Below, piece by piece: positions 23,872 through 29,886 of a stretch of 64,000 nucleotides of DNA. Source of the DNA: Streptomyces sp. LaPpAH-108. GTDB lineage: Bacteria > Actinomycetota > Actinomycetes > Streptomycetales > Streptomycetaceae. The position numbers and the translations under genes were made by a program. A model generated the notes under the pieces. The model had not been told where the DNA came from and searched no databases. It saw nothing but the letters and a program-made list of their open reading frames with translations. The DNA lies in assembly GCF_000373625.1 (NCBI RefSeq), contig NZ_KB891987.1, positions 797,081 through 861,080 on the forward strand, read 5' to 3'. Each line of letters starts with the position of its first letter. Within the stretch, counting starts at the first letter, position 1.

Positions 23872-24510
23872 ATGGCTGCCATGAGCCCTCGCAAGTCCGC
23901 CGCCGAAGCCCGCCGAACCCGGCAGCGCATCGTCCAGCGCGGCATCGCCCTCGCCTCGGTCGACGGTCTCGAAGGACTCACCATCGGCCGCCTCGCCGCC
24001 GACCTGTCGATGAGTAAGGCGGGCGTACTCGGCCACTTCGGCACGAAGGAGGCTCTCCAGCTGGCAACCCTGGAGGGCGCGGCAGCGGAGTTCTCCCGCC
24101 TGGTCTGGGAGCCCGCCGCCGCCGAACCCCCGGGCCTGCCCCGCCTCCGCGCGATCTGCGATGCCTGGGTCACCTACCTCGAAACCGCCCGCGACATCTT
24201 CCCCGGCGGCTGCTTCTTCACCACGGCCTCCATCGAGTACGACGCCCGGACCGGCCCCGTCCGCGACACGGTCATCCGCCTCTCCCTCCTCTGGCGCCGC
24301 CGTCTCACCACCGAGATCCGCACAGCACTGACCTCCGGCGACCTCCCCCCGGACACGGACCCCGACCAGCTCGTCTTCGAACTGATGGGCCTTTACCTGG
24401 CCCTGAACCAGGAGATACAGCTCTTCGCGAACGCGGCAGCAGGCAGCCGGGCCCGGATCGCTTTGGATCGCCTGCTGGGCCCTCGCGCCTTGGAGGACAC
24501 TCCGGGTTAG
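23872..24510 (+). CDS. TetR-family transcriptional regulator
   Basis: A 212-residue protein (MAAMSPRKSA); the ATG at 23881 is an alternative. AAAGGAGGG lies upstream. The N-terminal HTH (IVQRGIALASVDGLEGLTIGRLAADLSMSKAGVLGHFG spans about 20-57, in several pieces) is canonical for TetR. The C-terminal TetR_C domain has the DARTGPVRD and LFANAAAG features of a subgroup seen near fatty-acid and acyl-CoA genes. Divergent placement suggests it represses the FabH-like gene in response to an acyl ligand; this is inference. Confidence 0.88.
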   Translation: MAAMSPRKSAAEARRTRQRIVQRGIALASVDGLEGLTIGRLAADLSMSKAGVLGHFGTKEALQLATLEGAAAEFSRLVWEPAAAEPPGLPRLRAICDAWVTYLETARDIFPGGCFFTTASIEYDARTGPVRDTVIRLSLLWRRRLTTEIRTALTSGDLPPDTDPDQLVFELMGLYLALNQEIQLFANAAAGSRARIALDRLLGPRALEDTPG

Positions 24511-24545
24511 TGGGACGTGACCGGGAGACGGACGCTCATGCCCTG

Positions 24546-25547
24546 TCAGGAAGTGGTCGACCGCGGCGCTTGGTCATGGCTTTGGGGTGTGGGAGTGAGT
24601 GGACGTGGAACATTGCCCGAAGCGCCGGCTTCGAGTGGGCTGGGTTCGCCCTCTGGACTGGGTGTCGGCACAGTTGACCCGAGGCGTGGGAGATGCCGTA
24701 GGGCGTTTGGGACCTTGCCGGTCGACAGGTAGGGAATCTGGATCACCAGATAGATCAGCGGAGTGAGAAGGAGTAGGTGCTCGGCACTGAACCCGAGGAC
24801 TTTGAACCCCTCGATCAGTGCGGCTCCGATGAGAAGAGCCAGGAGGTGAGCGATGACCATGCGCCACGGAATCGGTGGTTCTGTCGGCATGGACTCCCCA
24901 GACGTGGGCTCTGGTGACGGAGCCAGACTCAAGGGTTCTTGACGCACAAGGATGTCGATCGAGTGCACGATGCGCTCGGCGAGCACTTTTACTTGCGAAT
25001 GATCACGAAGGCTCGCCTCGAATGCGTCGTCCAGTTGCTGGGACATCCTGACGCAGTGCGGCAACAAGGCGGCGCGCAGCTCTGATCTGCGGGAGATACC
25101 GAACAGAGCGTACGTGACGAGGGCAACCCCGAGTCTTTCCACCTGTTTGCTGAGCTCTGATGTCGCCATGGACGCCGCGTGGTCATCGTCAGGTCGGGGT
25201 CGGCAGGCGAGGATGGCCTGCAGGGCGGCCCATTGCACATATGCGGTTGGCCACCCTCGCTGCGTCGCCACTCGGTCGAGCTGGGCGAAACCGGCTGTGA
25301 GCACGAAGAGCGCGTACGAAGGCAGCCACATCTGACTTGCCATTTCCCACTGGTGCTTTACGAGCGCGGTGATCAGCGCACCGGTGCAGATGGTGATCGC
25401 GCACAGGAGCAAGAGCGTGGCAGAGACCGCGAAACGGCCTCGCTTGGCGAGATGCCAGGTAAGCAACTCGCTCTTGCTCCACTTCTCGGGGTGCTGGACG
25501 CCCAGAGCGGTCAGCGCGTTTTGGGCATTGTAGATCAGCGACTCCAC
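24546..25547 (-). CDS. Membrane protein of unknown function
   Basis: A 333-residue protein starting at GTG (VESLIYNAQN), inside the end of the upstream 55-codon gene, so probably translationally coupled. Two hydrophobic hairpins (about 39-63 with 73-90, and 229-254 with 258-276) flank a soluble middle of about 130 residues containing RRSELRAALLPHCVRMSQQLDDAFE. A Pro/Ser-rich tail follows. Codon use is visibly less GC-biased than in the flanking core genes, suggesting acquisition. I do not recognise the family. Confidence 0.65.
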   Translation of the reverse strand: MESLIYNAQNALTALGVQHPEKWSKSELLTWHLAKRGRFAVSATLLLLCAITICTGALITALVKHQWEMASQMWLPSYALFVLTAGFAQLDRVATQRGWPTAYVQWAALQAILACRPRPDDDHAASMATSELSKQVERLGVALVTYALFGISRRSELRAALLPHCVRMSQQLDDAFEASLRDHSQVKVLAERIVHSIDILVRQEPLSLAPSPEPTSGESMPTEPPIPWRMVIAHLLALLIGAALIEGFKVLGFSAEHLLLLTPLIYLVIQIPYLSTGKVPNALRHLPRLGSTVPTPSPEGEPSPLEAGASGNVPRPLTPTPQSHDQAPRSTTS

Positions 25548-25702
25548 TCGGATGTCCGAGCGCCCGGGGAAAACCGCTTGATCACTCGGCCTGGCCTCCT
25601 GGCGCGTCTGCCCAGCAGCGCTAGGGTCACGAGGATGGCCACACAGACCGCAACAACAGTCACTGCTGACGTGATCGAATAAAAATATTTAAGAAGATCC
25701 AA
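25535..25702 (-). CDS. 55-residue single-pass membrane protein
   Basis: A TTG-initiated frame (LDLLKYFYSITSAVTVVAVC) preceded by AAAGGAG six bases upstream. It has one clear transmembrane helix (about residues 12-30, TSAVTVVAVCVAILVTLALL) followed by a strongly basic tail (GRRARRPGRVIKRF). Its stop lies 12 bp inside the 333-residue membrane-protein gene, a typical overlapping operon. The A/T-rich 5' end (AAATATTT) is unusual for this genome. It is too short for standard gene calling, and the function is unknown. Confidence 0.6.
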   Translation of the reverse strand: MDLLKYFYSITSAVTVVAVCVAILVTLALLGRRARRPGRVIKRFSPGARTSEWSR

Positions 25703-25741
25703 TAGTGGCTCCTTTCAGCCGTGGCAGATAGTTTCGACGTT

Positions 25742-26209
25742 CTACCGCCAGCCGTCGAGGGAGAGGGCTGGGCCACCATCGAGATAACGATGCAGGGCGC
25801 TTGAAGTGGTGTCCACGAAGTCCCGGGGGATCGCATCGGCATCCACCCAGCAGACCTGGGCGTGCTTGTGAGGTTCGCGGTTCTTGGGCTCGCCGTTCCA
25901 CTCGGTGGTGGCGAAGACGACCGTGAGGAAGCCGTTCGACGCCATGGGCGCCGTGGATGACGTGAGCGACTTTCAAGGCCCCCCGGCTTCACGGTCAGGC
26001 GCGTCTCCTCGTACAGCTCGCGAACGGCCGTTTCCGTGATCGGCTCGCCGGGTTCGTTCTTGCCGACGGGAAGGTCCCACATGCCCTGGGCGAACTTGGC
26101 GTTCTTGCCGCGCTGGAGGAGGACTACGCGGTTGGGCCTTGTCGTGGACGATGACGGCGGCGACTAGCAGGGTCATGGACACCTGGCCGTCGGTCTTTGA
26201 TCGAGCCAC
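25742..26209 (-). pseudogene. NUDIX hydrolase, frameshifted
   Basis: Three reading frames together rebuild a NUDIX protein. The N-terminus MTLLVAAVIVHDKA is at about 26176-26136. The next frame carries the NUDIX box region (MWDLPVGKNEPGEPITETAVRELYEET) from about 26135, and a third frame gives MASNGFLTVVFATTEWNGE and WVDADAIPRDFV to the stop at 25742. Shifts occur near 26135 (extra C in GCCCAAC), near 25975 and near 25945. It would have hydrolysed a nucleoside diphosphate derivative. It is the last gene of a decayed operon. Sequencing error in C/G runs is possible, but the neighbouring genes are broken too. Confidence 0.75.
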
Positions 26210-26478
26210 GGGCTTGGTGCCTTCCCTCTCGGACGCCGATACTCCGGATCTCGATGGCGAGGGCGCCCAGAGCCTCGAAGTCGGCGTATTCGGTGACCCG
26301 TTGGACCTCCACCTCGCAGGTCTCGTCCGTTCCCTTGATCCGGAAGCGGATGGTGTCGCCGACGGCGAGGTGCGGGTACTTGACCCGCACCTCGATGGTC
26401 TTGGTACCCGCTGCTACGAGCTCGAAGTATGGGCGGTACAGATGGAGTTCGCGGACGCGGGCCCGTGCTGTCGGTCAT
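26124..26478 (-). pseudogene. ASCH-domain protein, frameshifted and internally deleted
   Basis: The intended ATG at 26478 overlaps the preceding gene's stop (ATGA), but the ASCH frame (RELHLYRPYFELVAAGTKTIEVR, then VKYPHLAVGDTIRFR) is only reached after a frameshift near 26450. After TEYADFEAL the sequence jumps to GALAIEIR. The 25-30 residue segment that normally carries a (Y)PPEKE-type stretch is missing, perhaps lost between short repeats encoding EAL. The remaining tail runs into the NUDIX start region. ASCH (PUA-like) domains bind RNA or modified nucleotides. Confidence 0.7.
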
Positions 26479-26950
26479 GGGGCTGGAACGCGCCTGGAAG
26501 GCGGGGCCGTCATCGGACGGCCGATCTCGGCGGCCGAGTACGAGCGGAAGAAATGGCGAGGGTCGGAGAGCAACGCCTCGGCCACCGCGAGCAGATGGTC
26601 GGCGTACTCGGTGACGGTGCCGGGCCACTGCCGGGTGTCGAGCATCAGGGAGCGGCGCCTTTGGGCAAGGGGGCACGGCCTTCTCATATGAGGGATTTCG
26701 ACAGCTTGGCGCCGGTGTCCGTCACGATCTGAGGGCAGAACAGCCGGACTGGGAGCTGGGCGCGGACAAGCCTTACGGTCTGGAGAGCCTCGTCGACGAG
26801 GTGTGATCCGAAGACCCAGTCGCCGCTGAGGCTCGGGCAGGAGACGTGGAGATGCAGGGTGGCCGTGGAGGGGGGGGCGAGCCGCCAGTGGGCGGCGTCC
26901 AAGCGCGTGAGGAGCCGGAGCCCGGTGCGCCGATCACATCGGCCGCCACG
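26475..26950 (-). pseudogene. Class I tRNA-ligase-like protein fragment with KLSKS motif, frameshifted
   Basis: Two frames encode LDAAHWRLAPPSTATLHLHV...PQIVTDTGAKLSKSLI (to a stop at 26684), then RRSLMLDTRQWPGTVTEYADHLLAV...FFRSYSAAEIGR (to a stop at 26475). GAKLSKS is the KMSKS loop of class I aminoacyl-tRNA synthetase-like proteins. The expected N-terminal half (HIGH motif, Rossmann core) is absent, and a further shift lies near 26915. Its stop overlaps the ASCH start by ATGA, showing that ligase-like, ASCH and NUDIX genes once formed one operon. Product function is unknown. Confidence 0.6.
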
Positions 26951-27122
26951 GAGCCTTCCGGGTCACCTGCTGGTGGCATCCTCGTCTGCCGTCGCTGAGG
27001 GCGTACGGAAAAACGACCGCACCCGGACCGTCATGGGCGCCGTGTTCGGCGGTCTGCGGGCCGGGTGCGGGCAAGAGACGCTGCAACCTGATAAATCGCA
27101 GGTCAGGCGGCACGACCCGAGG

Positions 27123-27518
27123 TCACGCCTTCTTGGTCTCCCAGAAGATCTTGGCGACCTGGTCGATGTAGTCCAGCGCCTTCTGGCCCGTCGCCGGGTC
27201 GGTGGAGGCCTTGGCGGCGGACAGGGACTTCACGGCCTCGTTGAGGAGGTTCTGCAGCTCGGGGTAGCTGTCGAAGTGCGGCGGCTTGAAGTAGTCGCTC
27301 CACAGCACGTCAAGGTGGTGCTTCGCCAGCTCGGCGCGCTGCTCCTTGATCACCGTCGCGCGGATCTGGAAGTGGGGGTCGTCGTTGGCGGCCATCTTGT
27401 CCTGGATGGCCTTCACCGACTCCGCCTCGATGCGGGCCTGAGCCGGGTCGTACACGCCGCAGGGCAGGTCGCAGTGAGCGCTCACCGTGACCGTGGGGGC
27501 AAACAGGCGGGAAAGCAT
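27123..27518 (-). CDS. sodN: Nickel superoxide dismutase
   Basis: A 131-residue precursor. The nickel hook HCDLPCGVY begins at residue 15 after a 14-residue leader (MLSRLFAPTVTVSA) that must be cleaved to expose His1, which ligates Ni(III). The four-helix bundle follows. SodN dismutates superoxide in the cytoplasm as a homohexamer. The cleaving protease SodX is encoded on the opposite strand at 29455, but a TnpB-like element now separates the two. In Streptomyces sodN is expressed when nickel is available, and nickel represses the iron enzyme through Nur. Confidence 0.97.
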   Translation of the reverse strand: MLSRLFAPTVTVSAHCDLPCGVYDPAQARIEAESVKAIQDKMAANDDPHFQIRATVIKEQRAELAKHHLDVLWSDYFKPPHFDSYPELQNLLNEAVKSLSAAKASTDPATGQKALDYIDQVAKIFWETKKA

Positions 27519-27545
27519 GGAGCGTTCCTTCCTCGTGATCGTCTT

Positions 27546-27570
27546 CTCAGGTGGGACATTACTCCCTGAG
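27546..27570. promoter_or_regulatory. Inverted repeat upstream of sodN
   Basis: CTCAGG and CCTGAG arms flank a 13-bp centre starting 28 bp upstream of the sodN ATG. This is the right place for the sodN leader, an operator or part of the promoter. Its role is not established here. Confidence 0.4.
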
Positions 27571-27628
27571 GGACTGGTTTTCCCGAGTGCCCCCCAGGGC
27601 TTAGGACAAAAGTCCGGGGTGCCGGCTG

Positions 27629-27644
27629 CTTGTTGTGCAACAAG
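27629..27644. promoter_or_regulatory. Palindrome between sodN and the TnpB-like gene
   Basis: CTTGTTG-TG-CAACAAG has perfect 7-bp arms. A small hairpin GGAC-AAAA-GTCC lies just before it (27604-27615). These may be structures of the element's left end or an operator of the original sodN-sodX promoter region; sequence alone does not decide. Confidence 0.45.
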
Positions 27645-27725
27645 GTGCAGTGCGGTCTGGCGGGGGTGGACGGCCGGGGCCTGCCGGGTGACTGTGCGGG
27701 GAACAGGAGTTCGCGTGCCGAATGA

Positions 27726-29420
27726 GTGACCTTTTCGGGGAGCGGGTCGTTGGACGCATTGATGGTGGCCGGAGGGAGGGGTGGGGTGGGTGGTCTGCGG
27801 GAGATCTCGGCGCCATTCGTGGTGCCCGGCCCCTCAGGTGTCGCGGTCCGGGACCGGCTCAAGCGTCTGAGCGTGGTGGACGAGAGGGCGCTGCGGCTGG
27901 TCGGTGATCATCTCGGCAGCCTTGCCGCGCGTGATCTGAAGGCGCGTTGCGAGGCTGGGCTGGAGCACGACAGTGACCAGTGGGCGGAGCGCAAGCGTCT
28001 GCTTACGGCGGAGTCGTCCTCGCGGTGGGCGGGTTCACTCACGAAAGCCACGCACGATCAGTGGGGTCTGGCCCGGCGTGCACAGCTCGCGCATGTGCGG
28101 GGTTTGGAGGCGGGGGTGCGTTCGATTGCGCATCGGTTGTCTCTGCCGGTCGGGGCGAAAGGCAGCAAGCGGGCGCCCGGGGGCTACCGCTCGCGGCAGG
28201 AGTGGTTTGCCAAGTCTCGTCGTCTGAGGGTGCTGGAGTACCGGCTGCGGTCGGCACGGGGGGACTGGCGAGCGGGTGTGGTGCGGGGCGGGAAGCGGCT
28301 GCTGAACTCCCGCCACCATCTCGACGCGGCCGGTCTCACTGAAGAACAGTGGCGGGAACGGTGGCGGGCCGCACGCCGGTTCCTCTCCGCCGACGGGGAG
28401 TCGGGCAAGCGGTTCGGCAACGAGACGATCAGGGTCGCTCCGGACGGCGAGGTCAGCATCAAGCTCCCCGTGCCGCTCGCGTATCTGGCGAACGCCTCGC
28501 ACGGTCGGTACGTCCTGACGGCGCGGGTGGCGTTCGCGCACCGGGATGAGCAGTGGCGTGACCATGTGACGGCGAACCGGGCGGTCGCCTACCGCATTCA
28601 TGAGGACACCGCGCGAGGGCGCTGGTACCTCACCGCCTCCTGGACGCGGTCCGTCGCGACCGTGCTGCCGTTGACCGCCGCCCGTTCATACGGGCTGATC
28701 GGCGTCGACATGAACGCCGACCATCTCGCCGCCTGGCGTCTGGACGCCCACGGCAACCCGGTGGGGGCGCCGAGGACGTTTGCTTACGACCTGTCCGGCA
28801 CCGCCTTCCATCGCGACGCCCAGGTCCGTCACGCTCTGATCCGGCTGGTGCATTGGGCCGAACGCCACGGTCTGGCGATCGCGGTCGAGGACCTGGACTT
28901 CAGTGCTGAGCCCACTCGCGAGAAGCATGGCCGCCAGAAGCGGTTCCGTCGGCTGATCTCCGGCATGCCCACCTCCAGACTGCGGGCCCGGCTCGTCGGC
29001 ATGGCGGCCGATCACGGCATTCCCCTGATCGCCGTCGACCCGGCCTACACCTCCCGGTGGGGCGCCCAGCACTGGCAGAAACCCCTCACCAGCACCCATC
29101 GCACACCCACTCGCCACCACGCGGCATCGGTGGCGATCGGACGACGCGCCCTCGGGCACCCGATCCGGCGGCGGACGGCACCGCCCCGCCATCACCAGAG
29201 CGATGATGGCGGGCATCGGACCGTCCAGGCCGGGCCAGGCACCCCGGGGCGTGCGGAACCCCGCCCCCGTGTTCCCGGACCACGGATACGATCCGTGCGC
29301 GCCGGGCGCGGAGCGAAAGCGGGCGACCAGCGTGCCCAACACCGTTCGGGGCACACGGCTGAGCATGAGACCTGGCAACAGGACTTCCTCCCACTCAGCC
29401 TCCAGGAACGGTCAGACTGA
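27726..29420 (+). CDS. tnpB: Solo TnpB-like (IS200/IS605 accessory) RNA-guided nuclease relative
   Basis: A GTG-started 564-residue protein (alternative ATG at 27762). The RuvC-like core is recognisable: IGVDMNADH (Asp328), IAVEDLDF (Glu388) and VDPAYTSRWG (437-446). Two canonical parts are missing. The CxxC zinc ribbon after PAYTS is replaced by RWGAQHWQKPL, and the third RuvC motif (normally D-x-N-A-A) reads RHHAAS (463-468). The last 80 residues (after about 480) are Arg/Pro/His-rich, and the DNA there is predicted to double as element right end and guide RNA. No TnpA is nearby. It sits between sodN and sodX. Confidence 0.85.
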   Translation: MTFSGSGSLDALMVAGGRGGVGGLREISAPFVVPGPSGVAVRDRLKRLSVVDERALRLVGDHLGSLAARDLKARCEAGLEHDSDQWAERKRLLTAESSSRWAGSLTKATHDQWGLARRAQLAHVRGLEAGVRSIAHRLSLPVGAKGSKRAPGGYRSRQEWFAKSRRLRVLEYRLRSARGDWRAGVVRGGKRLLNSRHHLDAAGLTEEQWRERWRAARRFLSADGESGKRFGNETIRVAPDGEVSIKLPVPLAYLANASHGRYVLTARVAFAHRDEQWRDHVTANRAVAYRIHEDTARGRWYLTASWTRSVATVLPLTAARSYGLIGVDMNADHLAAWRLDAHGNPVGAPRTFAYDLSGTAFHRDAQVRHALIRLVHWAERHGLAIAVEDLDFSAEPTREKHGRQKRFRRLISGMPTSRLRARLVGMAADHGIPLIAVDPAYTSRWGAQHWQKPLTSTHRTPTRHHAASVAIGRRALGHPIRRRTAPPRHHQSDDGGHRTVQAGPGTPGRAEPRPRVPGPRIRSVRAGRGAKAGDQRAQHRSGHTAEHETWQQDFLPLSLQERSD

Positions 29421-29425
29421 GACTG
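29225..29425 (+). ncRNA. Candidate omega/reRNA scaffold overlapping the tnpB 3' end
   Basis: The end of the tnpB frame carries stable small hairpins, for example CACGGAT-ACG-ATCCGTG (29281-29297) and GCAC...GTGC around CCCGGGGC (about 29239-29254). In TnpB systems the guide RNA is made from the 3' end of the gene and the right end of the element. The guide would then read into the flank beyond about 29420, that is, the sodX leader. This is an inference from position and structure. Confidence 0.4.
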
Positions 29426-29454
29426 TGGAGGAACGGACCGGGGAGGTGCCGGGG

Positions 29455-29886
29455 ATGCCGGAGTTGTCGCAGGAGACCGAGCGGGGCAGGGCGCTGCCGC
29501 CCTTCGGGCTGGCCGAGGTCACGGGGCCGTCCATGGTGCCCACGCTGCACCACGGGGACCGGCTGCTGCTGCGGTACGGCGCCCAGGTCAGGCCCGGTGA
29601 CGTGGTCGTCCTGCGCCATCCCTTCCAGCAGGACCTGCTGGTCGTCAAGCGGGCCGCCGAGCGGCGCGAGGGCGGCTGGTGGGTGCTCGGCGACAACCCG
29701 TACGCGGGCGGGGACAGCACCGACTACGGCGTCGTACCCGAGGAACTGATCCTGGGCCGGGCCTGGCTGCGCTATCGCCCGCTCGGTGCTCAGCGCTCGC
29801 CGCTCGCGCTGGCCCGCTGGCTGTTCTCGGCCGCCAGGCCGCTGCTGTCGGACCGGTCGGCCGCCAGGCGCTTGCGGGCGCGGTAG
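29455..29886 (+). CDS. sodX: SodX, nickel superoxide dismutase maturation protease (S26/S24-like)
   Basis: A 143-residue signal-peptidase-like enzyme starting MPELSQETER after GGGGAGG; an in-frame GTG lies 3 codons upstream. The catalytic Ser is in VTGPSMVPTL, and the Lys is in LLVVKRAA. The conserved GDNPYAGGDSTDYG loop of S26 peptidases is present. It removes the SodN leader so the N-terminal His can bind nickel. No membrane anchor is evident. Its 3' end overlaps the convergent CGNR gene by 97 bp. Its promoter side has been taken by the TnpB-like element. Confidence 0.93.
   Translation: MPELSQETERGRALPPFGLAEVTGPSMVPTLHHGDRLLLRYGAQVRPGDVVVLRHPFQQDLLVVKRAAERREGGWWVLGDNPYAGGDSTDYGVVPEELILGRAWLRYRPLGAQRSPLALARWLFSAARPLLSDRSAARRLRAR

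What the first reader, a model, noticed from the sequence alone, without database searches (positions are those of the whole stretch)
27518..29455. TnpB-like element inserted between sodN and its maturation protease gene sodX
sodN (minus) and sodX (plus) point away from each other, and a solo TnpB-like gene lies between them on the sodX strand. In other Streptomyces, as I recall, these genes are adjacent. The insertion may separate coordinated promoters or let sodX be read from the tnpB transcript, making the SOD system dependent on the element.
Basis: partly seen in the sequence, partly recalled or inferred. Interest (0 to 1): 0.75.

Follow-up and report, generated by a model that had tools for sequence, protein, structure and literature searches.

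The report
TnpB element splitting sodN from sodX
A small selfish DNA element carrying a gene for an RNA-guided cutting enzyme has landed between a nickel superoxide dismutase gene and the gene for the protease that matures it, genes that lie side by side in nearly all other Streptomyces checked; it is an ordinary kind of insertion, with an unusual change in the enzyme's active site.

Summary
sodN (27123-27518, minus) and sodX (29455-29886, plus) are separated by a 1,792-bp element (27621-29412) carrying one tnpB-like gene. In 97 of 99 Streptomyces measured the two start codons lie 124-304 bp apart (usually 145); only this genome and Streptomyces sp. DSM 110735 carry the element, at the identical base. 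The insertion is exact: left flank GGGGT, right end AGGAACGGT, then CAGACTGAGACTG, rebuilding the conserved empty site. It belongs to a multi-copy Streptomyces family of solo-TnpB (IS200/IS605, IS1341-like) elements, with a GGGG(T) TAM and a 3' omegaRNA supported by covariation. It is single-copy here and no Y1 transposase gene was found. The insertion point is 5 bp past a conserved palindrome that stays with sodN, so sodX has lost its normal upstream sequence and probably depends on element transcription; no expression data exist. Two extra findings: the RuvC-III catalytic Asp is His in this clade, yet the gene remains under purifying selection; and the tnpB core is three times more diverged at silent sites than neighbouring genes between the two carriers, pointing to replacement by recombination. 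Domestication into SOD control is not supported: two carriers only, and no second genomic guide target.

The parts
27123..27518 (-). sodN, Ni superoxide dismutase
   Evidence: TIGR02753 E 1e-53, PF09055 E 1.9e-42
27604..27615 (.). GGACAAAAGTCC palindrome in the sodN-sodX intergenic region, on the sodN side of the insertion; identical in nearly all of 28 streptomycetes aligned
   Evidence: alignment of empty sites
27616..27620 (+). GGGGT, TAM / left target sequence (host DNA)
   Evidence: present in empty sites; GGGG precedes the left end in the family
27621..29412 (+). inserted solo-TnpB element, left end to right end
   Evidence: comparison with empty sites and with 81 copies, all ending in a GGT right end
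27630..27643 (+). palindromic left-end sequence TTGTTGTGCAACAA, possible subterminal hairpin
   Evidence: sequence; identical in the DSM 110735 copy
27786..29420 (+). tnpB-like CDS (544 aa from GTG 27786; longest ORF from 27726); stop codon in host flank
28707..28709 (+). RuvC-I Asp codon (D308), invariant
28887..28889 (+). RuvC-II Glu codon (E368), invariant
29118..29120 (+). RuvC-III position: CAC (His445) where 67 of 75 copies have Asp
29243..29412 (+). omegaRNA scaffold region at the right end, overlapping the tnpB 3' end; covarying stem and ACCGUU/AACGGU pseudoknot
29413..29428 (+). predicted guide, host DNA upstream of sodX (CAGACTGAGACTGTGG)
   Evidence: position directly after the right end
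29455..29886 (+). sodX, Ni-SOD maturation protease
   Evidence: TIGR02754 E 5.8e-25

Best explanation
A non-autonomous IS200/IS605-type (IS1341-like) element, made of tnpB plus its 3' omegaRNA, inserted once 3' of a GGGGT TAM in the sodN-sodX intergenic region of a recent ancestor of this species and Streptomyces sp. DSM 110735. Shown: exact insertion, empty sites in relatives, family membership, omegaRNA covariation, single copy, no Y1 transposase found in the genome, intact sodN and sodX. Inferred: the element's omegaRNA carries a guide for the empty site, so the RNP acts (if it still cuts) on element-free copies of this locus and favours retention of the element. The sodN core promoter is probably untouched (insertion 102 bp upstream of the sodN ATG), whereas sodX has lost the conserved sequence upstream of the insertion and is probably transcribed by read-through from tnpB/omegaRNA or from a promoter in the right end or in the 42 bp of host DNA left upstream of it. 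The RuvC-III Asp-to-His change is shared with a copy at another place, so it probably predates this insertion; it weakens or alters cleavage, and the protein is still selected, most likely for RNA-guided DNA binding or residual cleavage. Later the tnpB core was replaced in at least one of the two lineages by recombination with a divergent copy.
For: Spacing 124-304 bp in 97 of 99 genomes versus 1936 and 1953 bp in the two carriers; joined flanks match the conserved empty site; family ends and TAM; covariation in the right-end stem, up to 34 sequences with a double change at one pair; 80 relatives kept out of 572, several per genome, and 10 of 31 sampled genomes match the family; no PF01797 match in the own genome while 5 control genomes ring; one copy; sodX dN/dS 0.06. 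Core replacement: tnpB dS 0.366 versus median 0.12, maximum 0.25 over 49 ORFs; left about 270 bp shared with DSM 110735 (30 versus 10 and 4 sites), core star-like with the SID4985 copy. Selection: dN/dS 0.16-0.27 in the His clade versus median 0.26 in Asp pairs.
Against: No transcript data: dependence of sodX on the element is inference. The sodX promoter is unmapped, and the conserved AGACTGAGACTG block downstream of the insertion could be enough. The omegaRNA stem has one mismatched pair in the window copy. The AlphaFold model is poor overall (pLDDT 58.5), good only in parts such as the RuvC core. The raised silent divergence could in principle reflect a locally raised mutation rate.
Confidence: 0.7

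Rival explanations
1. Domestication: a nuclease-weakened TnpB has been co-opted as an RNA-guided regulator (TldR-like) of the sodN/sodX locus.
For: RuvC-III Asp to His in the clade with constraint as tight as in Asp copies; the guide matches DNA just upstream of sodX; Cas12m2 with a His-Asp-Asp site binds but does not cut (PMC10442227).
Against: Only two related species share the locus. The SID4985 copy, whose 8-kb locus holds no sodN or sodX, also has the His. No TAM-adjacent guide target elsewhere in the genome at up to 2 mismatches apart from the element's own right end, which lacks the TAM; 3-mismatch hits are at control level.
Confidence: 0.1
2. Plain selfish insertion with an inactive TnpB and a neutral effect on sodN/sodX; the His copy is on its way to decay.
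For: Single copy, no Y1 transposase found; the catalytic Asp is gone; one omegaRNA stem mismatch.
Against: The ORF is intact in both carriers with dN/dS 0.16, at the low end for the family; part of that constraint may predate the insertion.
Confidence: 0.25
3. Two independent insertions of divergent copies at the same base rather than one insertion followed by core replacement.
For: tnpB cores of the two carriers are as far apart as either is from the SID4985 copy.
Against: The left tip is identical (45 of 45 bases) and the left part that can be compared shares derived sites between the two carriers, while left ends differ widely in the family.
Confidence: 0.12

Closest known systems
ISDra2 TnpB and IS200/IS605 elements (PMC8612924)
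   Same: RuvC-domain protein, 3' guide RNA ending at the right end, TAM at the left flank, guide taken from host DNA, exact insertion without target duplication
   Different: No tnpA in the element and none found in the genome; GGGG(T) TAM; no zinc-finger cysteines; RuvC-III His in this copy
TldR, TnpB-like nuclease-dead repressors (PMC13418256)
   Same: TnpB-like protein with a changed RuvC catalytic residue, retained under selection, next to host genes
   Different: No TAM-flanked genomic target found for the guide; no gene association beyond two related species
Cas12m2 with a His-Asp-Asp RuvC site (PMC10442227)
   Same: Histidine in place of a catalytic Asp in a RuvC triad
   Different: There the first Asp is replaced, here the third; CRISPR effector, not a transposon protein
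TnpB clades with rearranged RuvC-III, such as RIII-r4 (PMC10278001)
   Same: Atypical RuvC-III motif
   Different: Membership not tested; reference sequences of that clade were not at hand

Membership tests
IS200/IS605-type solo-tnpB (IS1341-like) element | TnpB-family RuvC protein | tested here: met
   TIGR01766 and NF040570 matches, both below cut-off; Cas12f/TnpB chains among the best, weak, solved-structure matches; RuvC fold hits; profile comparison with canonical TnpB E 7e-5, probability 63%
IS200/IS605-type solo-tnpB (IS1341-like) element | omegaRNA/reRNA scaffold ending at the right end | tested here: met
   fixed right end in 81 copies, covarying stem, pseudoknot
IS200/IS605-type solo-tnpB (IS1341-like) element | insertion 3' of a fixed TAM, no target duplication | tested here: met
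   GGGG before the left end in the family and an exact empty site
IS200/IS605-type solo-tnpB (IS1341-like) element | mobility by a Y1 transposase in trans | tested here: inconclusive
   no Y1 match in the own genome; many copies elsewhere show past mobility
IS200/IS605-type solo-tnpB (IS1341-like) element | guided double-strand DNA cleavage | not testable with these tools
   needs biochemistry; RuvC-III His makes it doubtful
TldR | loss of a RuvC catalytic residue | tested here: met
   Asp to His at RuvC-III; the position is inferred from spacing to canonical TnpB
TldR | guide with a TAM-adjacent target at a host promoter in the same genome | tested here: not met
TldR | stable association with a non-transposon gene across a clade | tested here: not met
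   2 of 99 genomes; the third His-clade copy has no sodN/sodX in its 8-kb locus
RIII-r4 TnpB clade | the clade's rearranged RuvC-III configuration | not tested
   no reference sequences of the clade at hand

The most novel reading that the evidence does not exclude
A clade of Streptomyces TnpBs with a RuvC-III histidine keeps a selected non-cleaving or altered function, and at sodN-sodX this protein and its guide RNA have become part of the expression of the SodX maturation protease.
Probability: 0.08. Interest if true: 0.75.

Novelty: new member of a known kind. Interest (0 to 1): 0.38.

Why it matters
It is a clean natural experiment: two closely related species with the element and many relatives with the exact empty site, in an intergenic region conserved across streptomycetes and studied in S. 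coelicolor (PMC3919588). It can show what a TnpB insertion does to a divergent gene pair and whether element transcription replaces a lost promoter. The repeated Asp-to-His changes at RuvC-III (the tree needs at least five changes of that label), with no relaxation in the one clade measured, give a specific test of whether such TnpBs still cut.

Tried and rejected
Two genus-wide protein searches with tnpB failed on the server; an alignment search on 31 genomes worked. Rfam found nothing. The sigma-70 scan found no promoter, and it does not cover other promoter types. The structure model was too weak overall, and its coordinates were not at hand, so active-site geometry was not measured. I considered reading the open frame from 29203 into sodX as a fusion protein and rejected it: relatives without the element also show long open frames upstream of sodX, an effect of high GC. 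I considered the low tnpB identity between the two carriers as plain relaxed selection and rejected it because silent divergence is raised too.

Full report
Observation. The window holds sodN at 27123-27518 (minus), a 564-codon open frame at 27726-29420 (plus) and sodX with ATG at 29455. Family matches are secure for sodN and sodX. The middle gene matches TnpB models only over the RuvC region and below curated cut-offs, but belongs to a well-populated Streptomyces family and aligns with the genome's canonical TnpBs by profile comparison.

Insertion. In the same set of 199 genus genomes, sodN was found in 194 and sodX in 194. For the 99 pairs whose coordinates I compared, the gap is 124-304 bp, most often 145, except 1936 bp in this genome and 1953 bp in G176, which is Streptomyces sp. 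DSM 110735. Joining the flanks at 27620 and 29413 reproduces the conserved empty site. All 81 copies share a right end matching AG..., ending in GGT, with unrelated DNA beyond; GGGG precedes the left end in the copies where it could be placed. The target is therefore GGGGT followed by CAGACTG.

What the element is. It is a solo-tnpB element. Several copies occur in some genomes and 10 of 31 sampled genomes match the family, while this genome has one copy and no Y1 transposase match. The right-end 170 bp carry a stem with strong covariation and a perfect ACCGUU/AACGGU pseudoknot, the layout of a TnpB guide RNA. The predicted guide is the host DNA in front of sodX. No TAM-adjacent match to it exists in the genome at up to 2 mismatches except the element's own right end, where ACGGT replaces the TAM; 3-mismatch hits do not exceed the reversed-pattern control.

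Active site. D308 and E368 are invariant. The RuvC-III position is Asp in 67 of 75 copies, His in 7 and Gln in 1; 12 further copies read all have Asp. The window copy, the DSM 110735 copy and the copy of strain SID4985 form a fully supported His clade, and the tree needs at least five changes of the His label. That this residue is the catalytic Asp rests on spacing to canonical TnpB (HDRD against TRHD) and on a modelled helix start in the RuvC core, not on a solved structure. Selection in this clade (dN/dS 0.16-0.27) is no weaker than among Asp copies (median 0.26). Related precedents point both ways: Cas12m2 with a His in its triad binds without cutting (PMC10442227), while D. radiodurans RuvC uses a His as a metal ligand (PMC9228767), so the effect of this change cannot be deduced.

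Mosaic history. Between the two carriers tnpB has dS 0.366; 49 other ORFs in the window, some of them probably overlapping spurious frames, have median 0.12 and maximum 0.25. A separately chosen frame of the TetR-type gene gave 0.277, still lower. The left 45 bases of the element are identical and the comparable left part shares derived sites, whereas the rest is equally distant from the SID4985 copy. One insertion followed by replacement of the core by recombination fits best.

Effect on sodN and sodX. The intergenic region is reported as highly conserved in streptomycetes, with the mapped sodN 5' end close to its ribosome binding site (PMC3919588). The insertion is 102 bp from the sodN ATG, so the sodN core promoter is probably intact. 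A GGACAAAAGTCC palindrome, nearly invariant in 28 empty sites, ends 5 bp from the insertion and stays with sodN. sodX keeps 42 bp of host DNA upstream of its ATG. Its coding sequence is intact and strongly conserved (dN/dS 0.06), so it is probably still expressed, by read-through or from sequence at the right end. This last step is inference.

Verdict. The functional claim is untested. Domestication is unlikely on present evidence. The find is a rare, exact insertion of a known kind of element, with an active-site variant worth a bench test.

Noticed in passing
window 24490-27008: The stretch between the TetR-type gene and sodN is about 1.9 kb longer than in DSM 110735, where only 584 bp separate the matching parts; it holds ORF 24546-25547 (minus) and an ORF at 25660-26082 (minus) that looks by eye like a broken NUDIX-type gene.
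   Followed up: partly
window 27604-27615: GGACAAAAGTCC palindrome in the sodN-sodX intergenic region, nearly invariant in 28 streptomycetes; a possible operator with no known regulator.
   Followed up: partly
L039, L040, L049, L093, L108: Further copies of the family with His (Gln in L040) at the RuvC-III position, apparently arisen separately; only His and Gln are seen, not other one-step changes of Asp.
   Followed up: partly
own genome G000 C1:474656-475596 and C1:529570-530673 (L125, L127, L128): Two of the genome's other TnpB genes look broken: one split into two adjacent matches, one with an internal TAG.
   Followed up: no
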